Of a DNA stretch of 64,000 bases, positions 26,592-46,538 are shown piece after piece. The first letter of the stretch is position 1, and each line of letters begins with the position of its first letter. Made by a program: the position numbers and the translations under genes. The stretch covers positions 496,001-560,000 of the forward strand of contig JAXQJY010000031.1 of assembly GCA_037042185.1 (NCBI GenBank), given 5' to 3'. The DNA is from Sordariomycetes sp. S80-01Y (taxonomy: Eukaryota > Ascomycota > Sordariomycetes). The notes under the pieces were generated by a model. That model was given only the letters and a program-made list of their open reading frames with translations, had not been told where the DNA came from and searched no databases.

Positions 26592-29291
26592 CTACAGCTG
26601 ATACCTAGGCATCCGCTGGGATGACTTCTTTAGCTCTCCCATGAGCTGAATCAGCTTGTCCGTCAAGTGCGGCATGTTCATTCCCTCGAAGTTTGCCTGC
26701 ACCACACCCACAACTGCCTCCAAAACCATGTCCGGGTTTGCAAGATGGATACTTGCTAAAGACCTTGTCTGGCTGCTCCCCTGAACAACCCACCTTATAC
26801 ATGGGCGTCCGCTCCCAAACTCAGCAAAGCGCTGCAAGGACATGCTCTCAGTGTCATCTAGCCAGACGTCCCCAACTGAGCTTGCACCATTTCCATTGCG
26901 GCAGGCAGTTCCGTCCACTACACGCTGTCGTTCAAACAGTAAGCCGTACACCCAAAACGCCAGACTCGCATGGTAAAGCAGGATGGCTTCAGGGCCCCTT
27001 ATTAAGCCTTTGGAGAGAGACTTGGCGGCCCGGAAGATTTGGCCCGCGTGCCAAATGGCGCGTCTTGCCCCTTCGCTCTTAACCCAGTCGCGGACCATGG
27101 GGTAGACGGCACGCGCTTGCTCGGTTCCCTCCATGCCGGCGAATATTTGGATATCTTCGAATGGCATGTGGAGATGCAGGTGGATGAGCTCAAACCACAT
27201 CGCCAAGGCTGGCGACGTGGACATGTGGTTGTCCAGGCTCAGCCGTAGGTGACTGAGGAGCTTCAGAAGTTCATCAAGCCTCGAATTTGTGATGAGGGCA
27301 TTCCATCTCCGTGGTCGCAGTCTCTGGAGTGATGCGAGGCGGGTGTATTCCCAGGTAAGGCTCCAGGCAAATGACAATATAGAGCGACTGGTTACCAAGT
27401 TATCCAACGAGTTACTGTGGGTATTGAAGATCTCAGGGTCATCGACTAAGTCGGCCACGGCTAGTCCTTGGGCATTGGACTGACTTGGGAAAGACGTCTT
27501 CCACTGCTCTGGGGTTGACGCCAACCATAGCTCTGCCGAATCCGGCAGCGGTAGCTGAACCTCGGTGTAAGAAACCAGCGGGGTGACGAGTAGCGCCATA
27601 GATGCGCTCATGTCATGCAGCATGAACCTAAAGGCCAGTCTCTTGAAAGACTCCGCTTCAACCCAAGACAACCACTTCTGACGGAGAGTCTCGCCTTGGG
27701 AGTCGCCAATGACAACCTCGGGGTAGGAATCCCTCTTGAACTTCCCGTTCCGCCTTAGCATAGTCAATGGAGGCAGGAGGAAGCTCTCTGCAATCTCGAC
27801 CTGCCGACCATGACCACTCCAAAGCCCAATCTCGAGGATGATGCAGAAGGCTTGGACAAGTTGAAGGTCTCTTACGAGTGTGTTGTCGCAGTCCCACTGT
27901 TGAAAGGAATCAGCAACCTGTTGTTCGGAACAAGTGATCGTGGGACAGGTGAGCTCACCATTTTCGCTGTTGCCAGCCGTACGCATTCTGCGATAGCATA
28001 GCCAAGCTTTGTCAACGCAGGATCCGAGGTCAGCACGGCGCCAGACGCGGCCATGGCCGCCAGAAGCTCTGGCCTCTTCTCATTTGGGTCGAACGAAGGC
28101 GCGTGAAGGAAGGAGGCAGCTTGCGACACAGAGGAGGTGAGATAGAACTGAAGCAGAGTGTCGAGCAGTTCGACGGAAGGGAAGGATAGCACCGCCTTAG
28201 GCAGACTCGCCGGATTGCAGGTCTTGACAACCAGTGTCAGTATGCTGTCACGAGTCGCTACACTAAGCCTGGCGCACGTAACCCGCGACTCTACGGACAG
28301 TCGCGACTCGGGGGAGGGATACTCGGCTGTCGGCGGAAGCGATAAGTGGTGATCCTCAGCTCCCGCAAAGTCTTTGGCGTTGGGGCGGAAGTGCCAGTGA
28401 GAGTTCCTAAAGGCTTCAGCGCACATGGACGCGGGCTGGCCAGGGTCGGTCGAGTTTCGAGATGGTGGCTGAGTTTCGGGCAGAGACGTGAGATTGCCGC
28501 CTAGCTCGAACGGCACACTGACATTGTATGAATCCAGGAATTGTAGATCCATATCGTCAAGATCAGTGTTGCCGTCGGCATTTAAGTCCATACCTTCGAC
28601 TGGGGTCCACTGGGTTGAGAGAAGATTCAGAGCAGGGAATCCCGTGAAGAAGGAGTCCGCGCTGCCTAGCGACTGATCTTCAAAGCGATTAGATGAAATT
28701 GACCGGCGTGGATCTGGGACTTACCTAAGTCTAGTGACTGATTTGTGTGCGTTTCCATCGGCTGAGCGAAAGACGCTGTATCAGGGGATGCAAAGCTTCC
28801 TTGATCCGGCTCCGATAGACCAAGGAGAGTGTCCTCTTGCTGGCACTCAGTGTCAGGTGGCGTGAAAGCAAAGTCCGCATCTGCCGAGGCGTCCCAAACG
28901 CACTCGAAGCCCTTCTCGACGCATCTCCGGCACGGCTTGTTCTCGGTACACCGGAGATGATTCGACGCGCACGCTTTGCATGCTTGGGCCACACGTCCTG
29001 CGTCCCGCGACGAGGCCTTACTGGCTCTTCCGCCTTGAGACTCATGTCCTGCTACATGCCTCTTCAGAAGGTCTGTTCTTGTGAAACTCTTGGAGCAGAC
29101 ATGACATCTGTGGGGCTTGAATTGCGTATCTTTGGTCGGTTAGTATGGGGCACAAGACAGACCCCGGACTCGATGAAGAGAGCCAGAAGGTGCTTACGTG
29201 AGCGCACATGTCGGGACAAATGATCCAATCTCTTGTAGTCCCGCTTGCAAAGGCCGCATTGGAACATGCCTGACTGCTGCGCAGTAGACAT
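26592..29291 (-). CDS. Transcription factor with two C2H2 fingers plus Zn2Cys6 cluster
   Basis: This 847-aa nuclear regulator has four exons: 29291-29198, 29129-28725, 28677-27959 and 27917-26592 (introns 68, 47, 47 and 41 bp; the last is counted between exons 3 and 4, and the list is 68, 47, 41 in order of the three junctions). Finger 1 is C12-x2-C15...H28-x3-H32, finger 2 C40-x2-C43...H56-x3-H60, then Zn2Cys6 C82-x2-C85-x6-C92-x5-C98-x2-C101-x6-C108. The first intron splits finger 1 after the final Ser. The C-terminal 450 residues resemble the fungal-specific transcription factor domain (SFLLPPLTMLRRNGKF, FELIHLHLHMPFEDIQIF). It stands at the edge of the aromatic cluster, divergent from the dioxygenase across 569 bp, so it is the likely pathway regulator (inference). 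Confidence 0.88.
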
Positions 29292-29860
29292 GGCTCACTG
29301 TCCGGGCGACGATGTGAGCGGTCAATGACGGACGGGAGGATGAACGGGGAGCTGGAGCCGGGATGCGCCGGCAAGTGGAGGTGGGGGTCTGAGAAGAGGA
29401 ATTGAGGATAAAGAAGGGCAGATGGATCGGTGTCGTGCCAGATGGATATATCGCGAGGGATGCGGGGAAGAGAAATGAAGTGTGGAGAGAGTCTGGGGTC
29501 GGAGAACACCGCGGCAATTGAAAAGAAGTTCTTGGTACGCATCCATCACAATTGGTGGCTGCTGTCGTCGAGGGTCTAGACTTGGCATGGAGAGGATGGA
29601 GCCTAGGCCCAGAGCATAATTGTGTTAGATTGAGAGTGATGGACGCGTGGTCTCGGGCCAGTCCTCCACATCCCGACGCCTCCGAACCCCCTCCAGGAGG
29701 CGGCCTGAAGGCCTGCGGCCGAAGAGCTGTGGAAGGGCTTTAGCAACATTCAATGTGCTGACTTGTTATAACGGGACTCGCTCAATTGCTGCTGAAGCCC
29801 CAGAAGCTGCTGCCCAAGTTGAACCAAGATAGCTACATCACCCAGAGAAGCGCTACCGAC
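29292..29860. promoter_or_regulatory. Divergent promoter, regulator and LigB dioxygenase
   Basis: This 569-bp shared region contains the CGG-N6-CCG site at 29359-29370, a TATA-like GGATATATCG near 29440, and GC-rich inverted motifs near 29695-29725 (GGAGGCGGCCTG, CCTGCGGCCG). No coding sequence is supported. Confidence 0.45.
29358..29372. promoter_or_regulatory. CGG-N6-CCG site A, candidate regulator binding site
   Basis: CCGGGATGCGCCGGC. It shares 12 of 15 positions with site B at 33142-33156, including both half-sites. Zn2Cys6 factors typically bind inverted CGG triplets; use by the cluster regulator is inferred. Confidence 0.4.
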
Positions 29861-30917
29861 ATGATGAGTACGATGGCCACATCTCCACAGTACATGAGTA
29901 GCCTTGACTAATCCGAACTCGTAGCAGCGTCCCCGGTTCCCGTGCACTTTTTCTCCCATGGTTCGACCATGATGCTGGGAGAGGAATCCGAGTCCGCGGA
30001 CTATTGGAAGAAGGCTGGCGACCATGCTCTGGCACACGGGTTCAAGGGTGTGATAATGATGGTACGCAAGAAATACAGTTCTTAGGGTGTTCAAAACGCT
30101 GATGATTATTAGGGTGCACACTGGGATACCGAAGGCAATGGAATCGAGGTTGCCATGAACCCGTCGCCCGGGAAAAGCCCAGTGGCCTATGTCCACCCGT
30201 CTAAGTATGTCGACTACAAGCTCAACCCTGACCTCCACACTGGGGAGCGATGTATCTCGCTGCTGAAGAATGCTGGATTTGAGGCAAGTGGAAATGAAAC
30301 TTTCGATTGGATTCATGACACCTACCTAGTACTTGTAAGTCAGCCATGACGGGCCCACAAGTAGCCATGCTCTTGACTTACTCTGTCTATCAAATCAGAT
30401 CAGGATGTTCCCTGATGGCTGCCCGCCAACGACGCTGATTTCAATGAATGCGCGGTTCGACCCTCATTTTCACCTGAAGGTTGGACAGACCCTTCGGTGT
30501 TTGCGCAAGGAGGGCTACCTAATCATCGGGTCAGGTGGCGCGGTTCACAACCTCTACCGCAACTATTGGGCACCAATGGTGTACTACTCCGACAATTTCG
30601 CCCAGGAGAAGCCCCCGGAGCCCTGGGCCTTGGAGTTCAGGCAGGCCGTGGAGGATGTCATCACCAACAACAGCGGGCCGCAGCTCAGAAGGGCTATGGT
30701 GCGGTTGATGAAGCACCCGCTGTACAGGGATGCGCACGCCACTGATGACCATTTCATTCCGGCTATGTTTGTGGCTGGTGCTGCCGGTGATGAGGAGGAT
30801 GAGGGTGTTTATGGAACCCTCGAGGCGGAGACGTGGGAATTGACCAACATGTGTAACAGCCAGTTCACATTCGGGCAGTGGCCGAAGACTCTGGGAACAA
30901 CCGTCCAGGCCAAGTGA
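29861..30917 (+). CDS. Class III extradiol (LigB/DODA-type) aromatic ring-opening dioxygenase
   Basis: This non-heme Fe(II) enzyme family cleaves catechol-type rings next to the two hydroxyls. The model has four exons, 29861-29867, 29925-30061, 30113-30334 and 30399-30917, and yields 294 aa. The first exon is only 7 nt; it is chosen because it alone gives a start in frame with VPVHFFSHGSTMML, which carries the first metal-site His. Other hallmarks are GAHWDT, the catalytic NARFDPHFHLKVG and GSGGAVHNLYRN, then DDHFIPAMFV. Length is normal for the DODA group. There is no signal peptide, so it is cytosolic. Expected partners are a hydroxylase that supplies the dihydroxy substrate and a hydrolase that takes the cleaved product, both encoded nearby. 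The substrate is not predictable. Confidence 0.87.
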
Positions 30918-31130
30918 CTGAGGGGGTGATCAAACAGGCTATTTAATCGCTAGTATGGCACGACGTATACAACTTTGTGGACCTTTAATTCCGAGTTGGT
31001 GCTCTTCCATCTATGTAATTTCAAGTGCGCTTGAAAAAAGCTATGATACAACAAAGTAGCTCTCATGCTCGTGGCTTGGAAATTTAGGGTTTTAGAGCAG
31101 ATCTATTGAGTTTATGAATAAAATAGGCCC

Positions 31131-33011
31131 CTAGTTCGGTATGACGGGAAGGGTAATGTAGTTCTTCAGACCCGGCCCAAAGTGGATGTGGTTGACCCCC
31201 TGGAACACCTCCGCGGATCTGAAAGCAATTGTCAGTGTTCACTGCGCTTATGAAAAGATTTGCGTGTACTCACCTGTCCACTGGGTCATTGTGGAGGAAG
31301 ATCCCCGATCCTTGAGTATCGCCAGAGGCCACCTCGAACATGAGCTTCCCGCCCTTCTCGACCACAACGTTGGTCGGCCAGACCTCCACGTCAACCTGGT
31401 ATACCTCTCCCTGTATCACGGGAAGGACATCTTTGCTCGTGTAGTCACGATGCGGAAGCCACTCTCGATGCTTCAAATGCTCCGTGTCGACCTTACGGAG
31501 CGAAACCCTCAACCAGCCCTTGGTAAGTGGGACTGGGTCACCAGCAGTGCCGGTGTAGAAAACTTCTTGGCCATCGGGTCCGATATGGCGCAATGTGACA
31601 AAAAGGTCAATGTCGCTGGGAGTTGGACCTGAGGGATCCGGGCTCACCGAGACATTGAGATGCGCTGTGACATGACCAGTGATCTCCGTTTCGGCTTCAA
31701 AGGCTTCCGTGGTGAACTGCAAAAGCTGCGGCCGATCCAGTGTACCCAAAGCTTTATACGAGAGCTTTTGTCGCTCTTGAGGAGATGTCTTGTTCTCCCA
31801 TTGAAGGCCCATTTCTGGGGTCAGATACAGTTTCTCGTAAGTGGTACGAGCAAGCGGCCACTCGGTCTCGTCGCGCCGAGGGAATGCCCTTTCTTTCTCT
31901 GCATTGTTAAAGCCTGGGTTTCCTTTGCGAAGAACAAGGCTGACGGGTGGCTGTCTGCCTTCCGACCAACCATCGCGGTCCTCGCCCTTGAGGAAGGCAT
32001 CTAAGAAGCTTCGTTGGATGGAAGCCTCTTCTTCGTAATAGAAAGGCAAGTCATGTCTCCCGGTGATCATGCGCAAGAACTTAAACTTGGATCCGGCGTG
32101 AATGAACCCTTCGATATTGCCTCGCAAGTGGAGAAGAATTCCTCCCCAGTTGCCAACGGAGAGAAGCGGAACCTCGATGTCGCCCATGTCGTACTCCTTG
32201 GAAGCATAGTAAGGATCGTCGCGGAAGCGATTTACCTGGTTGTCCGTTGTCTGGTCCTGTCGGTTGGCAGCGAGTTCGTCTTCCGGCAAGTCACCCTCGA
32301 TCGTGTCCGGTCCCCAGTTCCGGGCGCTTCTGCCCGGTCTGCCGTACTGGTTGGTGATGACCTGTCTGTTCCACCAAAAGTTGATGAAGCTGTTGGAAAG
32401 AATACCGCCATGCCGACACCTGTCTCTGTAGTAATCCGACATTCCCTCCCATGGAATGACGCAGGCAAGACCTTTCGGCTTTCGCGCGGCAACTCGCCAT
32501 TGGCTTCCAGCATAGTAGGATATGCCCAGAAGGCCTACTTTCCCGCTGCTCCATGGCTGCTCCGCAGCCCACTCAACAACTTCACAGAAAGCTTCACTGG
32601 TCCCTCTCGACATGGTGTCTAGTATGCCAGGAGACTGTCCCAGCCCACGCTCATCTGCGCGCACAACCGCATATCCATGGCTTGTCCAATATCCAGGATC
32701 AGGCGTTTCCCAGGCCGAGTGAGCGGATTTGTGTTGGGGATTGACTTCGTCAAAGGACTTTGGGTGGAAACTGAAACCGATTAGCACGCAACATAAAATG
32801 AAAAAGGTCGTGCCTACTCTTTGTAATGGATGTCCTTCCCATATGGCCCGTAAGTCACAAGAACGGGAGCGCGGTCGACACCCTTGGGTCGGTAAACGTT
32901 GCACCGAACCAAGCCATCGATCGCCTTCAAGGTGATGGTTGCATTCTGCTCGAAAATGTACGGGAATGAGGTCTCATCCACCGTATGGAGATCCTTTGTA
33001 ATGTTAGGCAT
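31131..33011 (-). CDS. CocE/NonD-type X-Pro dipeptidyl peptidase S15 family hydrolase
   Basis: This 592-aa alpha/beta hydrolase has exons 33011-32818, 32770-31274 and 31218-31131, with introns of 47 and 55 bp. The nucleophile is the Ser in GISYYAGSQ; the oxyanion region is YGPYGKD and RADERGLGQSPG; TGRHDLPFYYEE carries the probable catalytic His. The C-terminal jelly-roll domain (ITGHVTAHLNVSVS, DIDLFVTL, GEVYQVDVEVWPTNVV) is present and the last exon completes it (HIHFGPGLKNYI). Family members hydrolyse esters, amides or X-Pro peptides; in this cluster an ester or amide of an aromatic acid is a reasonable guess. It converges with the dioxygenase and is divergent from the monooxygenase. No signal peptide. 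Confidence 0.9.
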
Positions 33012-33406
33012 TGTCGCGAACTGACTGCGAACCTAAGACCAGTCTACTACTGAACAGTTGGACTCAGTCCCAGCTTTACTTGAGAAATGTTTTCTTCCCT
33101 TTTCAAAGACAGCTGGCGTGACTTGATGGCATTACAACATCCCGGAGCGCGCCGGCTGAGTACGGCGGCAGCGTGGAGAGTCTGGTCCGAGGTGGAGGTA
33201 TGCACCCGACTGTGGCGCCCCATAGGGAGCTCTTACACGGAGTGGGCTGTCAAGATCTGAATATGCGTAAACAATTGGCTATTTCATTCTACTCCTCGTC
33301 TCAATGATCTTCCTGTAATAAACTTGAGGCTTTTGAAAAAGAGCTTCGCGTGCGAAATCATTAACAAAGTCAAGCGTCACCCGGGTGCTTCGAGTGTAGT
33401 ATCAAA
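33012..33406. promoter_or_regulatory. Divergent promoter, CocE hydrolase and monooxygenase
   Basis: This 395-bp shared region contains CGG-N6-CCG site B (33143-33154) and a perfect CACCCGGGTG palindrome (33378-33387) close to the monooxygenase start. Confidence 0.45.
33142..33156. promoter_or_regulatory. CGG-N6-CCG site B, candidate regulator binding site
   Basis: CCGGAGCGCGCCGGC, matching site A (29358-29372) at 12 of 15 positions; differences fall only in the three bases after the first CCGG. Confidence 0.4.
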
Positions 33407-35954
33407 ATGGCACAGAATTCCGACAATGAGGCCCTGAAAATACTTATCGTTGGTGCAGGTAATCACTAAGACACTGGCAAAAATATCATAAAGCAAGAGT
33501 ATTAACCGCTTCAGGCATTGGAGGACTAACGGCTGCGTTGGGTCTACGTCAACAAGGTCATCATGTCACCGTGAGTCTAAATTCTGGACCAGAGACTCGA
33601 GACTAAACATCGACAGCTTTTTGAGAGATCCGAACTGGCCCAAGAGACAGGGGCGGCCCTTCACCTTGCTCCAAACTGCCACGGTTTACTCCGCAGATTT
33701 GGCGTGTTTCCCGAATCTTTCGGCGCCAACCCGGTCAAGGGCGTAAGTGGAAGAAAAATAGCCCCTTGGTAGCCCTTTGCGTGCTAAGTACTAGAAGATC
33801 ACCGAGTACACTCCGGATGGGACATTGAAATTCGACATCAATGTGGCAAAGCCCAACGCCATTTGGCAGCATGTAAGTATCCATTGCGACAAATGAAGGA
33901 GGGAATTGTCGGGTTAATTAGTCACTTCACAGCCTTGGGTCCTCTCACATCGCGTTGGTCTACACGAAGAGCTCAAGAAACAAGCCACTTCCGCAAGCGG
34001 CTCTGGGATGCCAGCGACCCTGCATACATCTAGCCCGGTTGTGGATGTTGATGTTTCTACCGCAACAATTGTCTTGGAAAGCGGCGCCACATTTTCGGGA
34101 GACTTGGTCATTGGGGCAGATGGAGTCAGCGTGAGTTCCACACACTCCATCACTCATCCTCTCGCTCAAGTTGAACTTTTAGTCTGTGACGAGGAAAGCT
34201 GTGGTCGGAGATAGCATCAAGCCTTTCGGTTCTGGGAAAAGCGCGTTCAGATTCATGATACCTCGTCAGAAGATGCTGGAGGACCCCGCAACCCAGAGCA
34301 TTGCGAAACGAGAAGGCTACATGACCATGTGGATAGGGAATGATTGCCGCTTGATCATGTATCCTTGCTCAGACAACACCTTGATGAATTTCGTTGCTAT
34401 CCACCCGAGCAATCTTTCAGCTTCGAAAGGAGAAGGTAAGTCGCGGCCCCATATCTTACTGGCAAAGAATCTGTTTGCTGACGTTGTGAGCTACAGGCTG
34501 GAGTCGAGGCGGCAGCAAAGAGACGCTTCTCGAAGTATACAAGGATTTCGAACCACTCGTCCAGTGTATTCTCGGAATGGTAGAAGCCAGTAGTCTCAAA
34601 GTATGGACGCTCCTGGATATGGAACGTATCCCAAGCTGGACCAAAGGACGCCTTGCTCTCCTTGGAGACGCGGCCCATCCGTTCCTCCCCCACCAAGGAC
34701 AAGGAGGTCAGTATTCTCCTGCGTAATGCATAACGTCAGGCCTTGGCTGACCCAGACAGGCGGAGTTGCTATTGAGGATGCCGCCTCGCTATGCGCCTTG
34801 CTACCGATAGATACCAACACGGATGAGATTCCCGAACGCCTGACAATGTACCAGACGATCCGAGATGAAAGAGCCCATAAGATCCAAGAGTTTACCCGGC
34901 TTGTAGGAACCGACCTTGACGACAAAAGTCGAGGCGAATTCAACAGTAAGCACGCTTGGCTCTTCGCGTAGACCTAGCCCGTTTACTGACAGGCACAGTC
35001 ATGGAATATACAAACTACAATTTTGGCCACGACGAGTGGCACAACTCCTCTCACGCGCTGAAGAAGCACTTATGGTCACGCAACGGCCCGGTGCACTGGC
35101 GCTCTCCAATGTCTTGGGGACCCCTGCCGAGCCCCCGACAGGACCATTATGGACGTCCCGTACCTGCCCAGAAGTCGAGATTCATCACGCACTCTGTTCG
35201 CTTCAAAACTTCTGCAACATTGCTGAAGACCCTCTTCCCTAGCGAAGCCTTCAGCTTCGTCAACCCAGGAACTGTTGCCGAGGCGAGCTTCAAATGCACC
35301 GAGCTCGATGAGATGAAGTGGCTCGGCGGAGGAGGCTACAAGTTCTTCGGTCTTTGGATTCATGGTGTTCAATATACGAAGAAAGACGGCACCAAAGTCC
35401 AGGGGACCTTCCTGCCGGTGCTTTTGGAGACACTCACCGACCCTATCATTACGGGCAGAGAGGAGCTGGGGATGCCCAAGTTGTATTGTGATATTGGTGT
35501 TGCGAAGGATGAAGGGTCCACCAGGATTACTTGCAACTGGAGAGGCTCTACCTTCGTGGACATAAAGATGAGCGGCCTCGGAAGTGTTCCGGCATCTGGG
35601 GAGCCCAACGGCATGAACGGCTCCTCAACCAAGCTGGCAGCTCCTCCAGGCTCGGCAGGCGACAACATTCTTATCTACCGATACGTCCCAGCCGTGGGAA
35701 AACCCGGCGTGGCCGATGCTGAGTATCCCGTGGCTATTAGCGAGAAACTCTCTCGCGTCTCGCAGGTGATAGAGAGGACGCGAGAGGGGACAGGCAGCAC
35801 CATCAAGTGCACGGGAGGAGACTGGGAGACTTTACCAACGCTTCACCATGTGGCCTCAGGGTTCGCCGAGATTCCTATCTACGGCGTCGTCGAAACCAAG
35901 AGCGTGGAGGGGCGTGGGGTGGATGACTTGGCGCAAGCAAGCAGGATTGAATGA
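33407..35954 (+). CDS. FAD monooxygenase fused to acetoacetate-decarboxylase-like domain
   Basis: Nine exons: 33407-33458, 33515-33570, 33617-33742, 33795-33872, 33933-34130, 34183-34435, 34497-34706, 34760-34945, 34999-35954; 704 aa. Exon 4 could start at 33798, which drops one Lys. The N-terminal 400 residues are a salicylate-hydroxylase-type flavoprotein: GAGIGGLTAALGL (FAD), FERS, DLVIGADGVSS (DG motif), GRLALLGDAAHPFLPHQGQGG. The last exon, after EYTNYNFGHDEW, continues into an ADC-like domain (about 430-690; GGGGYKFFGLWIHGVQY, FLPVLLETLTDPIITGREELGMPK). The stretch that carries the Schiff-base Lys pair in clostridial ADC appears to be missing. I infer hydroxylation of an aromatic ring, with the second domain binding or converting the product. 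It is divergent from the CocE gene. Confidence 0.87.
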
Positions 35955-36129
35955 GTACATACGCATTTGATGGTTCACATATATTTATCTTCCATACTTG
36001 GTGCTCGAATCATCCAAAGGACTTTATCATACGAACAAGAAACAGTCCACCCCTTTCAAGACCAGACTTCTGAGTGACAGGGAGCGGCGACAAAGACATT
36101 GAATATTATTCTCCTAGGTATTGGTTTAT

Positions 36130-37474
36130 TCAGAACCGGCGGCTTGAAATCAAGCGTCCGGAGCATTCTCCGAACCCCACGCCCGACGATTCCTCTCCTG
36201 CAAATCCAGTGATTCGCACCAAATCTCCATCTTCGAGGAACCTCCTCTGTGATCCGTCGCTCAGCGCAACGGGGACCCTTCCACCTTCTGTAGTTTCCAG
36301 CAGACAGCCGCGGCTGCCGTTTGAATCCCCGCTAATGGTCCCAGTCGCCAGCAGGTCTCCTGTTCTCAATGCGCTGCCAGAGCTCACGGAGTGAGCAACC
36401 ATCTGGGCAGGTGTCCAAAACAAAGACTGAACAGGACATGTACCAATCTTGCTGGAACTTTCTCCAACGACAATCTCAACTTCGAGGGTTATTCCATGTG
36501 TAGTAGGACTGGGAATATATAGGTAAGAGGACGTCTCAACCGACTGCGATGGCGCCGGCACTCTGTGTGGCTCCAGGGCATCTAGCGTGACGATCCACGG
36601 CGATATCGTGGTTCCCAAGGACTTGCCATTAAAGGGACCCAAAGGCGGCATTTCGAAACCCTGGATGTCTCGAGCTGCAACGGCTCATCAGCACTGAACC
36701 GGTTATGAAAGGATGCGAACCCACCAGACCAGTCATTCAAGATGACAAACCCAAAGATATGCTCCTCAGCATCGACCGCTCGCAAACACTTTCGCATAGG
36801 CAAAGGCTTCCCTACCACTGCGGCAAATTCGACTTCGTAATCCATCTTTTCAGAAGGGCCAAATTTGACGGCAGGTTCCTCTGCCTGATCTGGCTGCGAA
36901 GCTGCCCAGAAATGCCCACAAGGTCGCTCGATATCTGTTCCACTGGGTACAATGCTTCCGGCGCGCCCTTGGTATCCAATGGGAAAGTAAGAGAACGCAT
37001 CCGGGGCCCGCGAAGATTTCGCCATGATTCTTCCTGCATTTTGTACGTGGAACAAGGAGCAGGAGAAGTCTAGTTGTGTCAGTTTCTGTGAGACTGCGAC
37101 CCCAAGATCCCGCACGTACCCGAGAAGTCCTTCACCTCCACAGGCAAACGCATGGTGACACTTGATACATTCTCTTTACTATTGGGCGGGAAGCCATCAA
37201 GCCCATGCTGCCTGAAAGTACTCTGAATGGTCGCCCGTACGTCGCTATGGACCTGTCTAGGGAGGGCGGCGAAGCTGTTCAAGGTGCTTTGCTCGAAAAT
37301 GGCATCTGGAAGGCCGCTAACATCCTTGAAGAGACCGTAATCGGCTAATTCAGATAGGAATAGAACAGTATTGCTCAGCCTACTCACTGCCTGGGCATTG
37401 GCATGGGTGGACGACGAGGCAATGCCAAAGGGCACATTACGATCCGAAAAGTGGTGATCAAAGTTCGAAGACAT
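36130..37474 (-). CDS. Fumarylacetoacetase-like hydrolase with changed substrate pocket
   Basis: This 414-aa protein is full length, with the N-terminal SH3-like domain (NFDHHFSDRNVPFGIAS). Exons 37474-37120, 37069-36725 and 36674-36130 have two 50-bp introns. FAH enzymes hydrolyse a C-C bond in a beta-diketone acid using metal and a His. Metal ligands and catalytic His are kept: Asp119 and His126 in DFSDFSCSLFH, E-x-E in MDYEVEF, Asp in LNDWSARDIQ, and the GKSLGTTISPW Lys. Positions that in mammalian FAH bind the substrate tail (Tyr128, Arg142, Tyr244) are Ser121, Ala135 and Met here, while Tyr159 is kept. So it is a paralogue that probably cleaves a different acylpyruvate, likely the ring-fission product of the neighbouring dioxygenase (inference). 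ATG 37474 is preferred over 37492. Confidence 0.9.
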
Positions 37475-37787
37475 TTTCAGGGACCTAAACAACAGGTATC
37501 TGCTAGAGGAATTGCTCAGAACATGTCATGCTCCCTTTCTCGTAATAATATCAACGATGTTGATGTCCCTGACATTCGGACGCAGGCGCCCACGATCGGG
37601 TCACCCGCCCACATCGGAACGAGGAGGCAAACGGTGCTGGGTCCACAAGCACACCCCGACGGCAAGGCTCGCCTGTTACAGCTATATACAGTCGAAATAT
37701 TTAAAAGTTGCTCTCAACTGGACGTTTGTACGATCGGTCTGTGCTGTCAACTCTTAAGTCAGGACTACCAACATTGACATTCTCACC
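37475..37787. promoter_or_regulatory. Divergent promoter, FAH-like and cupin genes
   Basis: This 313-bp shared region contains CGGGTCACCCG (37597-37607), an inverted CGG with 5-bp spacing and perfect 5-bp arms. A TATA-like GCTATATACAG lies near 37681. Confidence 0.4.
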
Positions 37788-38339
37788 ATGGCGCTCCCGG
37801 GCAAACTGAGTCACCCCAATCGCTACATTACAGCGCATGATGACTCGGGAAAGTCCATCGTCGATACTTCTGTCCCGGCCGAGGCTCCCTTCTACGAACT
37901 GCCCAACAAGTCTGCCGCCTTTGCGCAGTGCTATGTCACTTCCGAGTTCCCGGTCCAGCTTGAAGACTCCGCCGATCTGAAGGTCTATCAAGACTTTTTG
38001 TCCAGCCCTCCGGGTCTCACAGTTTCTGGAGGCACAGTCCTCCGCTACGTCGACATGCCTCCGGATTCCACATCGCCAATGCATCGCACGCTGAGCCTCG
38101 ACTACGGAGTAGTGTTGGAGGGGGAGGTGGAGCTTATTCTGGATTCGGGCGAGAAGCGATTGATGCGTAGGGGCGACATCTGCGTGCAGAGAGCCACCAT
38201 GCACGCCTGGAGGAATACGAGCAAGACAGAATGGTCTCGGATGCTGTACATACTTCAACCAGCGAAGCCTATGGCTGCAGGTGGGCAGAAGTTGGAAGAG
38301 GAACTGGGGACTATGGAGGGGGTAAAGTCATCAACGTAA
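37788..38339 (+). CDS. Cupin-2 domain protein
   Basis: This single-exon 183-aa protein has one small beta-barrel. The N-terminal 90 residues (PNRYITAHDDSGKSI, YELPNKSAAFAQCYVTSEFP) are typical for fungal cluster cupins. Motif 1 is altered, MHRTLSLDYGVVLEGEVEL, with a single His and Thr where metal cupins show H-x-H; motif 2, GDICVQRATMHAWRNTS, keeps H-x3-N. Metal binding is thus uncertain. It is not a gentisate dioxygenase (too short). In the cluster it may be an isomerase, a lactone-forming enzyme or a binding protein; I do not assign a reaction. Start context ACCATGGCG is good. It is divergent from the FAH-like gene. Confidence 0.85.
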   Translation: MALPGKLSHPNRYITAHDDSGKSIVDTSVPAEAPFYELPNKSAAFAQCYVTSEFPVQLEDSADLKVYQDFLSSPPGLTVSGGTVLRYVDMPPDSTSPMHRTLSLDYGVVLEGEVELILDSGEKRLMRRGDICVQRATMHAWRNTSKTEWSRMLYILQPAKPMAAGGQKLEEELGTMEGVKSST

Positions 38340-38542
38340 ATCAATGTGAAACCCCTCAACATCACAATTTTATGACCAAGCACAATTTTCCTGATTCCAG
38401 TTGCGCGGATGGGTTGGGAAGTCGTTGCCATGCGCCATCAGATGACCTCCCATCGGCGCACTTGTAGAAAGGTCACCTAGTGTACGTCTCGTCATATTGT
38501 TGGATCGGTCATTCAGCTTGCAACTACACTATCTCCGACTAA

Positions 38543-38971
38543 TCAGTACTCTCCTCCTACATCGTACCTGAAAATACGATCATTGATCTGGCCAACCGTC
38601 CCTCGCCAGATTTTGGCAGCCGTCTAGGAAGTATCAGCGCCCCGCAAACATGAGTTCCTGGTCATTTGCAAACTTACGGCGTTGATGAACAGCCCGGTAA
38701 ACATGATGCTAACAAACGCTCTTTCAGCATTATTGAGATAAACCCGGACCTCCGACTGGTCTCTGTCGCGGTTGATCGGACGGTGACTGGGCACCCGCCG
38801 GTGCGTGGTGTCCCAGTCGCTCGCTGGCGGAGCGGGGCTGGCGGTAGAAGGCGTCCTTGGCCCCTCTGTCTCCCTTCTCTGTCTAGAGTGGTGAAGCGCG
38901 TAGTCGTTTAAGATCGTAGCGGGAGTGCGCTCCAAAGTCGTGATGGTTGTGGTTGTGGTTGTGGTGGCCAT
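38543..38971 (-). CDS. Small hydrophobic protein of unknown function
   Basis: The model has exons 38971-38678 and 38623-38543 (54-bp intron, GTAAGT..CTAG, phase 0) and gives 124 aa. The N-terminus has a poly-Thr run coded by a hexamer microsatellite, then a polar Arg/Pro/Ser region. Near the end is a hydrophobic helix, AERAFVSIMFTGLFINA, joined by the splice to TAAKIWRGTVGQINDRIF. That continuity across the junction is the main support. It would be a single-pass or peripheral membrane protein. It fills the strand alternation of the cluster, divergent from the aldehyde dehydrogenase-like gene. It could be unrelated to the cluster, or not a gene. Confidence 0.45.
38940..38971 (+). repeat. TGGTTG hexamer microsatellite
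   Basis: Repeated GGTTGT/TGGTTG units on the plus strand code for the Thr run at the start of the small protein on the minus strand. Length variation would change the Thr count without shifting frame. Confidence 0.7.
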
Positions 38972-39280
38972 GGCGAGCGATGATCGGATGTGCCGTTCAG
39001 GATGCCTGAGAGGACCTGGGACAGCGTCCTGGCACAGATATTGTGCCAAAGACGAATGTATGCTCCCCCCTCCTCCACTCACGGCGCCAGACGTCCAGCG
39101 CTTCCGGTTGTGTCCCAAACGGTGTCGGGAAAGTGGAGGAGCCTAGCCGATGCTCTTTACCCCATCCTCCATCACAGCAACTTTTGAGAATATGAAGTGA
39201 GAGGACGCGGGGTCAGATTAACCATTCAGTTCAATGACCACTTTACGAATTTGTGACTCGATCGCTCAACCATCGCGGCC
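38972..39280. promoter_or_regulatory. Divergent promoter, small protein and ALDH-like gene
   Basis: This 309-bp region contains CGG-ATGTG-CCG (38985-38995), an inverted CGG pair with 5-bp spacing. Confidence 0.35.
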
Positions 39281-40965
39281 ATGGACAAGCACACCAAGCC
39301 TTTCGCGAAGGTCAGGTCGTCCGCCATCGATGGGCGGGTCAAGAACCCAATCTACAAAAAGGATCAATTAAAGCAGCTTCATCGCATTCTTGCCGCAAAT
39401 GCATCGGAAATTCAAAATGCGATGAGGGAAGACACGGCAAATCGCACCGCCGTTGACGTGAAGATCGAATACTGGCTCGCTCTCCAATGCGTTGCGGGAT
39501 TCCACTCCTCAATCGACCCTGAGGCGGCTCTGAAAGAAGAATACTTGATATCAAAGGGAATCGATGCTCCGAAGGCGAGAGAAGCCGTTGGGATTGTGGT
39601 CATCGAACCAGCCTCACATGGATTTCTCTACAGTCTCATCGCCGCCCTCGCGCCCGCAATTGCAGGGGGCAACTGTGTCATTGTCCAGGTATGTATTTCA
39701 CCGTGTCACCCGTTTCAGAAAGAGGACAAGACATTTTTGGCTTACAAAAGCTTTAGTTGGATCAGTCATTGTTGAATACGCCACGACTCGTCTTGGGGCT
39801 CATCAGTCAGGCACTGGACGCCGACATTTTCGAAGTTACTCCTAAGCCGGCATCCGATGCAGACATTGGGCATCCCCATGTTCGAGTACTTCAAAAAGGC
39901 TCATCAACTCCGGTCTTGACCCATCACATTGTTTCTAATCCAGACGCGCCCATAGTCGCGTTTGTTGAGAGGGATGCGGACATCGAAGCAGCCGCTCGAG
40001 CACTCGTCACAGCTCGCTTTGCTCAGGGAGGAAAGTCACCATATGCCCCAGACCTTGTCATGGTCAATGAATGGGTGAAGAAGGATTTCTTGAGTGCAGT
40101 CGTACAGCAGCAGATTGCTTCAACTACTAATGGTGATGCGTCCCCGAAGCCGAAGAAGACGGCAGACTTCAAACTGCTCACCGAGGCTGAAAAGGAAGGA
40201 CTGTCTCATGTGGTGTCCTCTGCACCGGGGGGGACCATACTTGATGTCAGGGACAGGTGAGTAATTGGTCACCTCCAATGTCGGACGACAAAGCTAACAT
40301 GCACGAGAAACTCATTCCTCTTACAACGCAAGATCACTCAGCCATGCTTGATCGTCCATGCAGTCAAGAGCATGGACGACGCCATTGATCTTTCTCAACG
40401 GTACGAACTTGTATAAAACACTTCTAGTGTGTTTGATAATAATCGTCCTCGCAGCAATAGCCAGCTTGCGGCAGCATTTGTGTTTACCACTCCCGCCATG
40501 GCAAAGTACTTCTGCCAATTCATCAACTCTGCCCTTACTTTCGTCAACCAAATTCCGATAAAGCTTTTATGTTCGTATTTCTCATCATGTTGAGCAATCT
40601 ATAATTACTGAACAATGGCAGATGGTCCGATCGCCCCAGATGGGAACCCACCGAATCCTGCCACGTACGGCCTCTACGACACGGAGTTATTTACTGTGCC
40701 ACGGCCCAAGTATGTAGCTGGATCCAAAACCAGCGAGCGTCTCGGTGCACTCCTCGGCAACCCGTCGCCTCAACACATTGAGGCTCTTGTTGCTGAAGCC
40801 GCCGGAGAGCTTTCGGATACGAAGCGCCCGAAGCGGTTGGTGAAGCTGGGCTTTTTCGAGCAAGGCATTGTGACAGGATTGGCCTTGGTTTTAACAACTG
40901 CGCTAGGTTGTACGGGAGTGGCGGGTTACTATCTGGCGTCTTATCTACGTGGCCGTCAATCTTAA
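39281..40965 (+). CDS. Aldehyde dehydrogenase-like pseudoenzyme with C-terminal membrane anchor
   Basis: This 486-aa protein has five exons: 39281-39688, 39757-40256, 40308-40400, 40455-40570 and 40622-40965; the fourth intron has a GTTCGT donor, set by reading phase. The ALDH fold is clear (KKDQLKQLHRILAANASEI, ALAPAIAGGNCVIVQ, NQIPIKLLYGPIAP). Key catalytic parts are changed: PASHG replaces the PWN loop, the LELGG segment with the general-base Glu is gone (SNPDAP), and GGKSPYAPD with Ser230 stands where the catalytic Cys is expected (GQ-x-C). The C-terminus adds one membrane helix, GLALVLTTALGCTGVAGYYL. So normal aldehyde oxidation is unlikely. A scaffold, carrier or regulatory role at a membrane is an inference. 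It is distantly Msc7-like in layout. Confidence 0.87.
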
Positions 40966-42209
40966 CTTCGACTGTTAGCTTTTTCTGCGCTGGTATATCT
41001 CGCATGGCTTCGTCGTGGTCGAGGAATCTCAACCTTCAAGCAATCTACTTCTTCCGGTACAGCTGAACTGTATAATATAACGATTTTGCTGCTTGTCGCT
41101 TATCACTGTTCCGCATCACGTCTTTGATTTGTTCAAGGGAGATAGGACGGACAAGAAAAAGATGCTATCAGTGGATTCATGCAGGAGCTAGCTTGACACC
41201 ATGTTTTCTCTCCTCGGCACAATGATCAATTTCGTTTCGAAGCGAAATACCGATAGTGCATTATGAGAAAAATCCAATACGAGAGTGAGTCCACGGCAGT
41301 CATGCTGTCGGTGCACATATCGAACTGTACATACGGAAGAAGAACTGGAACCCGGGGTCGATATGTTCCAGCTGGACGGAGTCTGCAGAGATCCCAATGC
41401 ATTCGTACCCCATGTCAGTTGGGGCACGCAAGTTCAGCAGCCGGGCGGAGAGCGGCAGCCATCCTTTGCAGTCTGGGTCCACGTAGAACTGGGGGAGGCG
41501 CACCGGTACGGAGTGTTCTGACCTGAGCTATCGGCATGTGGAGGTTGTCTGTGCGCGGATGTGGAGGAGGATGGCTGGCGACCGGCTCCACGAACGTCAC
41601 CCGGTCAATAAGCAGGCTAGATGCCTACCCTCAATCGACGTAAGGACCTCGCTCCGGGGCCTCCGCATCCCCAGATTCCTCAAAGAGTATCGGGCTACGA
41701 TGAGGGTTTGCCAGCTGACCATGAGGGGCACCGGGGTACAGTAGTCAGCGAAATTACCCCCACAAAGTAATGTAGTCCACTCGGGACTACTCACTAGCAG
41801 TTGGATAGACTTTCTCTCAAGAAATAATTTGGGAAACAATGCTTTGTTCATTCATACGCGACTGTTCCATTACGAAACAGATTGGACGAGAATTGATGGC
41901 TTCTGTAGTGAAAGGTGTAGATAAAATTTTGGAGGCAGTATCATGTTCGGTAGTTCCCATTCTGGGAATTCAGAGGAGTCCTATGCCTTTAATGGTTCAG
42001 CTGGATGTATGGCTATGAAACTCGTCTCAGAGGAGGATCAAGAGCCTGGATTTGTGTTTTACTTCACCGAGATGTTGCAAGATCATCAGTCAACGCAGTA
42101 CTTAATTGCCAAGAAATATTCAATCACGAGCCACTTACAACCACAAGAGCTACAAACTCCATGGCTGCAACCCCGTCGCAAGTATTCAAATTCCCCCTGA
42201 GACAAGTAA
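40966..42209. other. Intergenic region, no gene seen
   Basis: This convergent spacer lies between the ALDH-like gene and the transporter. Short overlapping frames around 41.2-41.9 kb have no visible family features. It is mildly AT-richer towards 42 kb. Confidence 0.4.
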
Positions 42210-44059
42210 TCAAGTGGAAGTCCATCGCTCAACGTTTGCCGAAGTGGCGATCCTCATTCTCTTTCCGAACATCCAGAGGGGAATCGAAAGCAGAGAGAAC
42301 AAGCCCATGAGCATTCCGAAAATACCGAAGGGCTCTGCTCCTCCACGAGTTTGCACCCAATCTGAAACAAAGAACGTCCATGCGAAAGCTATGATACTGC
42401 GCAAAATGGTGATGACCGTGAAACAATCCGCAGCGAGTGCGCCATAAGAGTCTATAAGCTATAACAAGTATATTAGCATCATACGAAAACTGAGTTATGT
42501 TGGGTGGCTCACATAGTTGAACCCTACCGACGGCACTTGCATCAGTCCGAACGCCACCATTGCAAACCCGGCGTTCAGGCCGACCCAGCGGTTACCCCCA
42601 GGGTATTGGGCACAGAACCCAAAAACCAAGAATCCACCCGTAGCGACCGCGAGAGGGAAGAATAAGGTAGGCAGGCGATCCTCAGCTTCGGCCACTCCAC
42701 GTCTTTTTGCCTTGGCTTGGCGCTTCAATAGACTGTCTGCTAGGAGAGACGTGTAGAGAAAGCCGAGGGCAATGCCGATCAATCCACCAACGTTTATCAG
42801 TCCTGAGTTCTCGCCGAATAGGTAAGGAGGCATTGCCAGAATCTGTGGCCCGACGGTTGCGATCGTGACGATGCCGCCGACCAAGCCAGCGTAGTGGAGC
42901 ATGACAACCCATGTACCCGGAAGAGCAAGAGTTCTCCAAGGCTGGACAGCGTGGTGTAGCAATCTGCCTTGAGGGCGACCGAATCCGAGGGAGCTGATGA
43001 AACTGTGCGGTTTGTAGGATGCGGGCTCGGGCTGTTCGATCTGCGTCGCCCCAGCCTCCTTGGATCCGGGAGAGGCGGTTTCGGAGGCAGCTTCGTGGAC
43101 AGCCGTAGAACCTCTGTCGTACAAAGTCTCGGGTACGAAAAGAGCAACGCCAACGAAGCAGAAGGCGGACAAAGCGACACTGACCCAGAAAATGCTGGAC
43201 CATCCGTGTCTGTGGCTGATGTAACCACCGCTCAGCCCGCCTCCCAAGGAGCCAGCACATAGGAAGAGTGTATAAACTGCCTATTTTCTTGTCAGTCACC
43301 AGATAAGGGTATACTCCGAGAGAGAGAGAGAAACACACCATGGCCCTTCCTCTCTCATGGATGAAATATAGATCTCCGACGAGGGCAGGGGCAACAGTAT
43401 CAGCTGCAGCGCCTCCGGCCCCTTGTAGAAGCCGTGCCGCAACAAGTGACTCGTATGAACTTGTAAGGCCACACCACATAGAGCAAAGTGTCATCATAAG
43501 GGTTGCGACGAGTAGTATGGGACGCTTTCCGACCCAGTTCGACAATGGAACCCACCAAATGTTGCCTGCCCCGAGGAATAGCACGTGTACCTAGAGTGAT
43601 AAGGAAGTTAGCAAGTTGAAAGAATTGTAGGAGTTCCTTGGATGGAGTCGTTTGGCATACCGCGATCAGACGTGTAAGCTCGGAAATGGACCTCGGATCC
43701 TGAGGGAAGGTGTACGGCCACACTTGAATGGCTGGTGCAACGATAGAGCTCGTAAAGTTTGCCACAAATGCGTAGGTAGACACAATCAACAACGCTGTAG
43801 CCTTTTGCCAGACAGGATAGTTGAGCGGGTCTCGAGGGTCTGCTGAGGGCACGGGAAACTTGACAAGGTGGCCGTCGCTGGCCTCATGGTCAATGTCTTT
43901 TCCAAGTCTCATGTTAGCTCTACATAGTCATACAAAAAGGTCTTAGGTCAGAGAAGAATGTCTTGAGGTAGACCTACCCAGGATCTCAACTGTACCAGGC
44001 GGCGTTGCCGCGTTCACCTGTACTTTGGAGAGCGCGAACGCTTCTTTCCAGTTTGCCAT
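42210..44059 (-). CDS. MFS transporter
   Basis: The model is 535 aa in five exons: 44059-43978, 43917-43661, 43590-43339, 43280-42513 and 42458-42210. The N-terminal exon is included because it supplies PPGTVEIL, typical of this fungal MFS group; the shorter alternative starts at 43912. Hallmarks are the opening PSADPRDPLNYPVWQKA, helix 2-3 signature NWVGKRPILL, GAGGAAADTVAPALVGDLYFIHERGRAM and GSLGGGLSGGYI. A cytosolic loop of about 70 residues (Glu, Ala and Ser rich) splits the two six-helix halves. It probably exports or imports a small organic compound of the cluster. It closes the alternating gene row and converges with the ALDH-like gene. Confidence 0.87.
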
Positions 44060-44902: not shown

Positions 44903-46538
44903 TCACAGAGCAGCCCCGACATCAACAAAGTCGTAGCTGTCAGTGGTCATGGGCTCATAGTGTCGCATTTCGGCATTCTTACCTCGCGCACTGGTTCCAC
45001 TCAGACTGAAAAGACCAATAGAGTTTCGCGAGTCACTGCGTTCTCCGTAATCGTATCCAATCCCGGTTGACAGCCCACGCGACTCTGTACGCGAATCATT
45101 GCGTTTACCTTGAGGCAACTGTTCCTTGACAAGGCGAAGTGTATCTTGTTGCATCTGCTCGATGATCTCCTCGAATAGATCATTCCGTCGACCTTGGGCA
45201 TCTTCTCCCTGCCCCTCGTGGACTTCAGGGAGACGCCACTTCGGGTAGACATTCTTATGGGAGGACTGGACTTGGAACTCGTTATCCGGGTAACTAAAAT
45301 AGTAGTGACAGAGCCGACAAGGGGGCTTGCTTGTCGCGACGAACATGGAATTGCTCCAGTAGTCAGAGGGCTCCACGCGCCCCCCACGAACAAGGAAGTC
45401 CTGAAGATGTACCTCGCAGTGAACAAATTGCCTTATTGACTTCTGAGGGAGTTCCTCTTTAATAAAACGGTCCAGATGGTGTTCCTGGAGCTTCTCGACG
45501 TGGCTGTAGTACTCATCCAGACCCATATCTGGAAAGGCGGCCTGGATAACGTCCAAGGATGCCGCGGGCCGCGGCGGCAATGAGAGCCTCGCAGGTCGGC
45601 TGGAGGGAATGTAATGAACAGTGAAGCGGGTAAAAAGTTCAGGCCAGCTTTTCGAGGCTCTGACAATGCACTCAGCTGCTTGACGGTACGAGTATAGTCG
45701 ACCAAAGTAATGACGGAGCTCGCACCATGAAGCTGAACCGTCAAATTCGCCCGCACCGGCGCGCTCATTGATGACCTCGCTGAAGCCGCTGTCTCTTGCG
45801 AATTGAATTGCTTTTATGAGAGTCTCGCAATCGCTAAGAACTTCAGGGTTTCTCATCGTTAGCACGTGATAGGTTGTCGTGGCCTCAAGCCATGGTCATC
45901 TCACAGAAGTCGACTTACATTTATCCTTCGCATTGTTTCCAGACAACATGTTCCGTGAAAATTTGGCCTTCGTTTCAATCTCCTGCAGATAACGGATCGT
46001 ATCGGGCCCTTAAGCTGTTAGCCTTACTTCAGCCTATGATGAATCAGAAGCGCTTACCGTTGTGTGCTACGGGATGATGACACTTTGCGATACATTCACC
46101 GATTGAATTGACAATCATTTTTAGGTAGTAATCCACCCTGGGGAAGTTGAACTCCAAAATACGCCACAACACTTTCTTTTGTAAAGCTTTCTCGGCGAGC
46201 CCATCAGGATTCGTACCGATGAACCCAAGGAGGTCACCGAGGAACTCCTTTGTATGTTTGAGCTCCGTATCGTTACGGTTGTTTGATGCGAAATAATACG
46301 CCGGGCCGTTGGCGGTCTTCAGAGCTACCAAGGCAGTGATGGTGTTGCCCCCTTTGACAGTGTCGCAAATCTGGGCAAGCTTGCACAAGAAGACTTGGAA
46401 AGGTGTAAGGATGCGATCATTTTCAGGGTCGCCAGAGGTATAAGCGATACCCTTCATTGCTCTACAGCTCTTATTAACGGCAGAAAACACAGAACAGATG
46501 TATATCAACTGTGTAAACTTGTCATTGGTTGAATTCAT
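44903..46538 (-). CDS. OTT_1508-like nucleotide/nucleic-acid deaminase
   Basis: Exons 46538-46058, 46008-45919 and 45840-44903 give 502 aa. The third exon's acceptor (GAAG at 45841-45844) is fixed by phase and by a CTAAC branch site 15-20 nt upstream. The deaminase zinc site is H331-C-E333 in FVHCEVHLQDF and P-C365-x2-C368 in KPPCRLCHYYF, the cytidine-deaminase-fold pattern. The domain and its long N-terminal helical region match the fungal OTT_1508-like deaminase family (Pfam PF14441, by motif). Related bacterial domains occur as effectors of polymorphic toxin systems, while fungal copies are expanded and uncharacterised. The C-terminal 130 residues are polar and probably disordered (QMQQDTLRLVKEQ). 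There is no signal peptide. All zinc and Glu residues are present, so it looks active. Confidence 0.82.

What the first reader, a model, noticed from the sequence alone, without database searches (positions are those of the whole stretch)
26592..44059. Nine-gene aromatic cluster with strict strand alternation and four divergent promoters
Regulator(-), LigB dioxygenase(+), CocE hydrolase(-), FMO-ADC(+), FAH-like(-), cupin(+), small protein(-), ALDH-like(+), MFS(-): each neighbour is on the opposite strand. This gives four head-to-head pairs sharing 300-570 bp. The enzyme set suggests ring hydroxylation, extradiol cleavage and C-C hydrolysis, without any backbone synthase. I do not know a described fungal pathway with this set.
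Basis: partly seen in the sequence, partly recalled or inferred. Interest (0 to 1): 0.78.

Follow-up and report, generated by a model that had tools for sequence, protein, structure and literature searches.

The report
Conserved fungal aromatic-breakdown gene cluster
A fungus carries a block of eight or nine neighbouring genes that probably open and dismantle a plant-type aromatic ring; related blocks turn up in distant fungi, but what they degrade is not known.

Summary
Eight are solid; gene 7 (small protein) has no Pfam match and a negative coding score. Without it the alternating run is six genes (chance 0.24-0.30 in 20-25 genes), so the layout is weak evidence; no shared promoter motif survives correction (P=0.29). 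The cluster itself is real. Among fungi present in two homolog tables, FMO and FAH share a contig in 20 of 26, FMO and LigB in 7 of 11, LigB and FAH in 9 of 15. Single proteins join FMO-ADC to the cupin and, in a partial gene model, FAH to CocE. Corrections: the FAH is a full-length fumarylacetoacetase relative below that family's cut-off, with three recalled substrate-contact residues replaced here and in 115-120 of its 120 closest homologs; the ALDH-like protein lacks the catalytic Cys and Glu. Apparently related clusters are in print without a function: Grosmannia (pine extract), Bipolaris (in sorghum), Fusarium (benzoxazolinone). Best reading: an inducible cluster degrading a plant phenolic ester or acid by flavin hydroxylation, LigB ring opening and C-C hydrolysis; substrate unknown.

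The parts
26592..29291 (-). Regulator: two C2H2 fingers + Zn2Cys6 + Fungal_trans, 836 aa, 4 exons
   Evidence: models; Pfam
29292..29860 (.). Divergent intergenic region 1 (569 bp)
   Evidence: no shared motif after correction
29861..30917 (+). LigB / DODA-type extradiol dioxygenase, 294 aa, 4 exons; His14, 51, 172, 240 kept
31131..33011 (-). CocE/NonD (S15) alpha/beta hydrolase, 592 aa, 3 exons, nucleophile motif GISYYA
33012..33406 (.). Divergent intergenic region 2 (395 bp)
33407..35954 (+). Group A flavin monooxygenase fused to acetoacetate-decarboxylase-like domain, 704 aa, 9 exons
36130..37474 (-). Fumarylacetoacetase-like C-C hydrolase (N and C domains), 414 aa, altered substrate-contact residues
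37475..37787 (.). Divergent intergenic region 3 (313 bp)
37788..38339 (+). Single-domain cupin, 183 aa
   Evidence: fused to FMO-ADC in P0116
38513..38971 (-). Doubtful small ORF (116 aa in the model used)
38972..39280 (.). Intergenic region 4 (309 bp); divergent only if the small ORF is a gene
39281..40965 (+). ALDH-fold protein without catalytic Cys/Glu, hydrophobic C-terminal stretch by eye, 486 aa, 5 exons
42210..44059 (-). MFS transporter, 537 aa, 5 exons

Best explanation
A conserved degradative gene cluster of ascomycetes for a plant-type aromatic ester or acid. SHOWN: gene set and structures; co-location of LigB, FMO-ADC and FAH in many other fungi; an FMO-ADC/cupin fusion; an FAH with catalytic and metal residues kept but three substrate contacts changed; an ALDH-like protein without its catalytic pair. 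INFERRED: the MFS protein moves the compound in; CocE hydrolyses an ester or amide to an aromatic acid; the flavin enzyme hydroxylates it, probably with loss of the carboxylate, to a triphenol; LigB opens the ring; the FAH relative splits the resulting 1,3-dicarbonyl. The FAH changes predict an acyl part without the fumarate carboxylate. The cupin acts on the flavin enzyme's product or substrate. The zinc-finger protein is the local regulator. The order of steps and the substrate are not established.
For: Pfam content. Same contig: FMO-FAH 20 of 26 organisms in both tables, FMO-LigB 7 of 11, LigB-FAH 9 of 15; where tags are numbered, FMO and FAH lie 1-5 tags apart in 11 of 14 (for 12 of them; the other two read) and FMO and LigB 2, 6 and 12 apart in 3 of 3. 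P0116 fuses FMO-ADC with a cupin 57% identical to the window's; P0360, a partial model, joins FAH with a CocE 83% identical over 173 aa. FMO's nearest solved structure is a decarboxylative vanillate 1-hydroxylase. FAH: Y128 is Ser in 115 of 115 rows with a residue (5 gaps), position 142 is L/V/I/A/T/F in 118 of 120 rows (other two not shown), Y244 is Met in 120 of 120, while the two other FAHs of the same genome keep Tyr/Arg/Tyr. LigB His14 100 of 100 rows with a residue (20 gaps), His51 118 of 118 (2 gaps), His172 and His240 120 of 120. Clusters with the same kinds of gene respond to pine phloem extract, sorghum infection or benzoxazolinone.
Against: No substrate, metabolite or expression data for this genome. 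In some fungi the genes are apart (6 of 26, 4 of 11, 6 of 15). Several shared contigs are chromosome-sized, and in Penicillium frequentans LigB and FAH are 166 tags apart. The Fusarium cluster lists no LigB within it and its ALDH was not induced. In the Grosmannia cluster only the cupin differed significantly, and its authors report it not conserved in Aspergillus, Fusarium, Magnaporthe or Neurospora. Homologs of CocE, cupin, ALDH, MFS and regulator were not searched across fungi. A simple catechol cleaved by LigB would not give an FAH-type substrate. No shared promoter motif. Deleting all 17 potential ring-cleavage genes of A. niger did not stop growth on gallate (abstract), so gallate is not an obvious substrate.
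Confidence: 0.62

Rival explanations
1. Detoxification of one specific plant defence compound (benzoxazolinone-, stilbene- or pine-phenolic-like) rather than carbon use.
For: The reported inducers are plant defence compounds or infection.
Against: Ring opening plus C-C hydrolysis goes further than detoxification needs; the induced clusters were matched by annotation and order only.
Confidence: 0.2
2. Biosynthetic cluster: FMO, cupin and LigB tailor a pigment, as FMO and cupin do in oosporein (recalled) or DOPA dioxygenases in betalain-type pigments (recalled).
For: Two FMO relatives at 49-50% identity are named OpS4 by their source (P0073, P0104); LigB is DODA-type.
Against: No backbone synthase among the nine genes and 20 flank ORFs scanned; an FAH-type hydrolase and an S15 hydrolase point to breakdown.
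Confidence: 0.12
3. A form of the described fungal gentisate catabolism (GC) cluster.
For: Salicylate-hydroxylase-like FMO, cupin, ALDH-like, FAH family, MFS, TF.
Against: GC clusters as quoted have gentisate dioxygenase, stilbene dioxygenase and fumarylpyruvate hydrolase, and LigB or CocE are not named in the passages seen; here the cupin is a 183-aa single domain and the FAH is a fumarylacetoacetase type.
Confidence: 0.04
4. Chance neighbourhood of unrelated genes.
For: Strand alternation alone is compatible with chance.
Against: Repeated co-location in distant fungi and joined proteins.
Confidence: 0.02

Closest known systems
Grosmannia clavigera 'cluster 2' (PMC3091685, Table 6; passages)
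   Same: S15 peptidase, aromatic ring-opening dioxygenase, PutA family dehydrogenase (probably ALDH-type, inference), cupin and an unknown protein in one cluster; authors suggest degradation of phenolics
   Different: Table lists no FMO or FAH and adds a short-chain dehydrogenase; sequences not compared here
Fusarium verticillioides BOA-induced FVEG_03387-03405 (PMC10512309; passages)
   Same: FAH family, TF, FAD protein, cupin, ALDH, sugar-type transporter; FAD-cupin-ALDH-transporter in the window's order
   Different: No LigB or S15 gene named within it; an aromatic ring-opening dioxygenase (FVEG_06463) lies elsewhere; sequences not compared
Bipolaris cookei Bc_04816-04820 (PMC5722872; passages)
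   Same: ALDH, aromatic ring-opening dioxygenase and S15 genes within four gene numbers, read in planta and hardly in vitro
   Different: Galactonate dehydratase present; no FMO or FAH named; the S15 gene is called a serine protease there
Gentisate catabolism (GC) cluster of Aspergillus fumigatus (PMC3914699; abstract and passages)
   Same: salicylate-hydroxylase-like FMO, cupin-fold enzyme, FAH-family hydrolase, ALDH, MFS, TF
   Different: gentisate and stilbene dioxygenases, fumarylpyruvate hydrolase; LigB and CocE not named
A. niger vanillate route vhyA/mhdA/omeA (PMC8336404; abstract and passages)
   Same: flavin hydroxylase acting on vanillate, ring cleavage, esterase; the last two genes are neighbours
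   Different: ring cleavage by a homogentisate-dioxygenase-like enzyme; no LigB or FAH named
Fungal 'ARD' degradative gene clusters (Gluck-Thaler and Slot 2018, seen only as cited in passages of PMC10735191)
   Same: clusters anchored on aromatic ring-opening dioxygenase
   Different: a detection class, no pathway; the original paper is not held

Membership tests
Fumarylacetoacetase (TIGR01266) | curated equivalog cut-off 375.3 bits | tested here: not met
   354.2 bits
Fumarylacetoacetase (TIGR01266) | metal and catalytic residues D126, H133, E199, E201, D233, K253, E364 (roles recalled) | tested here: met
Fumarylacetoacetase (TIGR01266) | substrate contacts Y128, R142, Q240, Y244, T350 (roles recalled) | tested here: not met
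   Y128, R142 and Y244 replaced, Q240 and T350 kept
LigB (PF02900) | Pfam gathering score 26.3 | tested here: met
   41.0 bits
4,5-DOPA-extradiol-dioxygenase (NF007914) | equivalog cut-off 233 | tested here: not met
   92.8 bits
Extradiol dioxygenase, DODA type | metal/catalytic histidines (identity recalled) aligned with YgiD | tested here: met
CocE/NonD hydrolase (TIGR00976) | subfamily cut-off 66.3 | tested here: met
   195.5 bits
Salicylate 1-monooxygenase (TIGR03219) | equivalog cut-off 446.35 | tested here: not met
   135.2 bits
3-hydroxybenzoate 6-monooxygenase (NF006021) | equivalog cut-off 459 | tested here: not met
   190.5 bits
Acetoacetate decarboxylase | Schiff-base lysine (recalled) | tested here: inconclusive
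   short GRE..G.PK segment without an extra Lys in 105 of 120 homologs by pattern, 15 not matched; the reference segment is recalled
Aldehyde dehydrogenase | PF00171 gathering score 23 | tested here: met
   46.7 bits
Aldehyde dehydrogenase | catalytic Cys and Glu | tested here: not met
   GQTC aligns with GKSP, ELGGK with NPDAP, (second alignment)
Fungal gentisate catabolism cluster | gentisate dioxygenase, stilbene dioxygenase, fumarylpyruvate hydrolase | tested here: not met
   none among the nine genes by Pfam; definition
ARD-type degradative gene cluster | ring-opening dioxygenase clustered with metabolic genes in several genomes | tested here: met
   their pipeline not run
Degradative (catabolic) cluster | co-induction by and growth on a substrate | not testable with these tools
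   no expression or growth data for this genome

The most novel reading that the evidence does not exclude
The cluster encodes a meta-cleavage (extradiol) aromatic pathway widespread in ascomycetes, using a fungal DODA-type ring-opening enzyme and a new fumarylacetoacetase-derived C-C hydrolase whose substrate lacks the fumarate carboxylate, with a catalytically dead ALDH-fold partner. [quoted passage not shown]
Probability: 0.35. Interest if true: 0.75.

Novelty: new variant of a known kind. Interest (0 to 1): 0.5.

Why it matters
[quoted passage not shown] PMC12388069: extradiol dioxygenases 'are less common in fungi', passage). Here is a concrete conserved set with a LigB enzyme, a distinct FAH subfamily with a sequence signature (Ser128, non-Arg142, Met244 in mouse numbering) that makes a testable substrate prediction, and three separate expression reports that seem to concern the same kind of cluster.

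Tried and rejected
Strand alternation as evidence: rejected. Shared promoter motif: six 6-mers (three motifs with their complements) occur in all five upstream regions (P 0.02 against shuffles, 0.134 against flank stretches) and GTGGAG is enriched (0 of 2000 controls as high), but over all 6-mers the best is not significant (P=0.29). Second copy of the cluster in the genome: none seen; cupin and ALDH-like have no second match, the ADC half of the FMO none, the FAH two paralogs (searches without introns, best candidates only). Bacterial or archaeal counterpart: 25 loci, best-segment identities 22-32%, in a scan limited to two peptide patterns. Papers on FGSG_04967-04972, FVEG_03394-03402 and structures 8X0U/8X0V: one, one and no papers. 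Oosporein papers and most of the lists were seen only as listings. PMC5006380 passages had nothing on this set. Structure prediction and fold search were not used.

Limits: contig sharing is read from equal 'longest contig' lengths under the same organism or strain name and can mislead for multi-member protein clusters. Tables were copied by hand: one search lacks two FAH rows and is superseded. In one search all 120 FMO rows were entered but only 25 LigB and 38 FAH rows, those that might recur; I went over the printed tables again by eye and found no further organism in two tables under the same assembly. Same-species rows from other assemblies (F. decemcellulare, V. dahliae, Sporothrix schenckii, E. 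elasticus, F. avenaceum, F. oxysporum, Exophiala dermatitidis) were left out of the counts. The 15 rows were picked by hand; two numbered FMO-FAH pairs on different contigs (Lomentospora prolificans, Phialemonium thermophilum) were not in that script and are added to the 14. The window's residue at FAH position 142 is Ala in the MAFFT alignment but a gap in HMMER's.
Full report
Observation. I rebuilt gene models by hand from splice signals. All nine genes are at the stated places and strands; the four head-to-head gaps are 569, 395, 313 and 309 bp and the tail-to-tail gaps 213, 175, 173 and 1244 bp. Pfam names eight of nine: C2H2/Zn2Cys6/Fungal_trans regulator, LigB, S15+PepX_C, FAD_binding_3+ADC, FAA_hydrolase N and C domains, Cupin_2, Aldedh, MFS. 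Gene 7 has no family, uncertain 3' exons and a negative codon score against +0.087 to +0.181 for the other eight. Of 20 long flank ORFs scanned, those with Pfam matches are of other kinds: histidine kinase, PH domain, GNAT, IMPDH and alkaline phosphatase to the left; OTT_1508 deaminase, DUF7730, lipase and lipin to the right.

Chance. A run of nine alternating genes has P = 0.025-0.035 in 20-25 random genes, and about 19 are expected in 10,000 genes; a run of six, which is what remains if gene 7 falls, has P = 0.24-0.30. No 6-mer shared by the upstream regions survives correction. The layout is therefore not the finding.

Conservation. Homolog searches with FMO-ADC, LigB and FAH (best 120 rows each, of which the rows with a named organism are fungi) give organism names, contig lengths and often numbered locus tags. 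Organisms present in two tables: FMO-FAH 26, same contig 20; FMO-LigB 11, same contig 7; LigB-FAH 15, same contig 9 (how rows were chosen is told under limits). Misses: FMO-FAH in Dactylonectria macrodidyma, Fusarium torreyae, Lomentospora prolificans, Phialemonium thermophilum, Sarocladium strictum, Verticillium longisporum; FMO-LigB in Delphinella strobiligena, Microdochium nivale, S. strictum, V. longisporum; LigB-FAH in Aspergillus tetrazonus, A. undulatus, M. nivale, Penicillium cataractarum, Staphylotrichum tortipilum, V. longisporum. Where tags are numbered, FMO and FAH are 1-5 apart in 11 of 14 organisms; the three others (F. torreyae, L. prolificans, P. thermophilum) have them on different contigs (the last two read). 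FMO and LigB are 2, 6 and 12 apart in 3 of 3. LigB and FAH are 4 apart in Malbranchea cinnamomea, 166 apart in P. frequentans and on different contigs in V. longisporum. Malbranchea and Mariannaea have all three genes on one contig. The co-located sets include Eurotiomycetes (Malbranchea), Dothideomycetes (Lophium) and Sordariomycetes (Sporothrix). Joined proteins add links: P0116 (Seiridium cardinale, 888 aa) is FMO-ADC plus a cupin 57% identical to the window's over 165 aa; P0360 (V. longisporum, marked partial, perhaps a merged gene model) is FAH plus a CocE 83% identical over 173 aa. The FMO's best relatives are Emericellopsis atlantica (68%) and Fusarium zealandicum (67%); Emericellopsis is hypocrealean, so the unnamed host probably is too (inference).

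Enzymes. LigB: the four solved relatives are YgiD and DOPA dioxygenases; the four histidines aligned with YgiD's metal and catalytic ones (roles recalled) are kept wherever a homolog row has a residue; the protein falls well below the 4,5-DOPA-dioxygenase equivalog cut-off (92.8 against 233); a bacterial/archaeal genome scan limited to two peptide patterns found best segments of 22-32% identity, against 69-89% for the 120 best hits. CocE: above the CocE/NonD cut-off, with a GISYYA nucleophile motif. FMO: best solved relatives include a decarboxylative vanillate 1-hydroxylase (first) and a 4-hydroxybenzoate 'decarboxylase' flavoenzyme (third); below the salicylate and 3-hydroxybenzoate hydroxylase cut-offs. 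Its ADC-like domain has a short GREELGMPK-type segment with no extra lysine (105 of 120 homologs by pattern, 15 not matched), whereas the Schiff-base lysine of true acetoacetate decarboxylase is recalled to lie in a longer segment there, so the domain may not decarboxylate. ALDH-like: the alignment with a Cys-bearing ALDH puts Pro where the nucleophilic Cys stands and Asn where the general-base Glu stands. Its C-terminus reads by eye as a hydrophobic anchor, although the highest-hydropathy window lies elsewhere, at residue 115. It is probably a pseudoenzyme; no homologs were searched.

FAH. Against mouse FAH (residue roles recalled) the window protein keeps the metal ligands, the catalytic residues and two recalled substrate contacts (Q240, T350), but has Ser for Tyr128, Ala (or a gap) for Arg142 and Met for Tyr244. 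In the 120 closest homologs position 128 is Ser in 115 of 115 rows with a residue, position 142 is Leu/Val/Ile/Ala/Thr/Phe in 118 of 120 rows (the other two not shown), and 244 is Met in 120 of 120. The genome's two other FAHs (L005; L006/L007) keep Tyr, Arg and Tyr. The protein scores 354.2 against the fumarylacetoacetase equivalog cut-off of 375.3. This marks a subfamily that should not bind a terminal fumarate carboxylate in the usual way (inference).

Literature (passages or abstracts, as marked in Closest known systems). [quoted passage not shown] the cupin was more abundant under pine phloem extract (p = 0.03), the others not significant, three of its genes were seen only in treated libraries; the authors suggest phenolic degradation and report no conservation in Aspergillus, Fusarium, Magnaporthe or Neurospora. 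Bipolaris cookei Bc_04816/04818/04819/04820 (ALDH, ring-opening dioxygenase, S15, galactonate dehydratase) have 67/79/78/110 reads in planta and 3/2/0/9 in vitro. Fusarium verticillioides FVEG_03394, 03396-03400 and 03402 rise under benzoxazolinone while 03395 and the ALDH 03401 do not. The A. fumigatus gentisate cluster shares gene families but its listed members include no LigB, CocE or fumarylacetoacetase. [quoted passage not shown] niger leaves growth on gallate. My searches listed no functional study of this cluster that I recognised; the library holds open-licence papers only.

Mechanism. The most likely reading is uptake, ester or amide hydrolysis, flavin hydroxylation with possible decarboxylation, extradiol ring opening and hydrolysis of the resulting 1,3-dicarbonyl, under a local regulator. 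Chemistry favours a trihydroxy ring as LigB substrate, because an FAH-type enzyme needs a 1,3-dicarbonyl, which a simple catechol would not give (inference from established chemistry). The step order, the substrate, and the roles of cupin, ALDH-like protein and gene 7 are open.

Verdict. The new points are the cross-fungal linkage, the FAH signature, the probable ALDH pseudoenzyme, and the tentative link between three separate expression reports.

Noticed in passing
G000 C10:2165789-2167018 and C8:124983-126271 (L005, L006, L007): The genome has two further fumarylacetoacetases with the canonical Tyr/Arg/Tyr contacts; one would suffice for the homogentisate pathway (recalled).
   Followed up: partly
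G000 C6:795625-796269 (L001): A second LigB-family gene that matches PF02900 at 102 bits, against 41 bits for the cluster's protein.
   Followed up: no
window 39281-40965: ALDH-fold protein with Cys to Pro and Glu lost plus a hydrophobic C-terminal stretch by eye: probable membrane-anchored pseudoenzyme.
   Followed up: partly
window 29375, 29482, 29664, 33173, 33192, 39073, 39133, 44316: GTGGAG (fits the recalled CreA consensus SYGGRG) occurs 8 times in four of the five upstream regions against a mean of about 1 in flank stretches, but is not significant after correction over all 6-mers.
   Followed up: partly
window 54121-57048: A 975-aa open frame on the minus strand without a Pfam match at E 0.001.
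   Followed up: no
window 44903-45895: OTT_1508-like deaminase-domain protein just beyond the cluster's right end.
   Followed up: no
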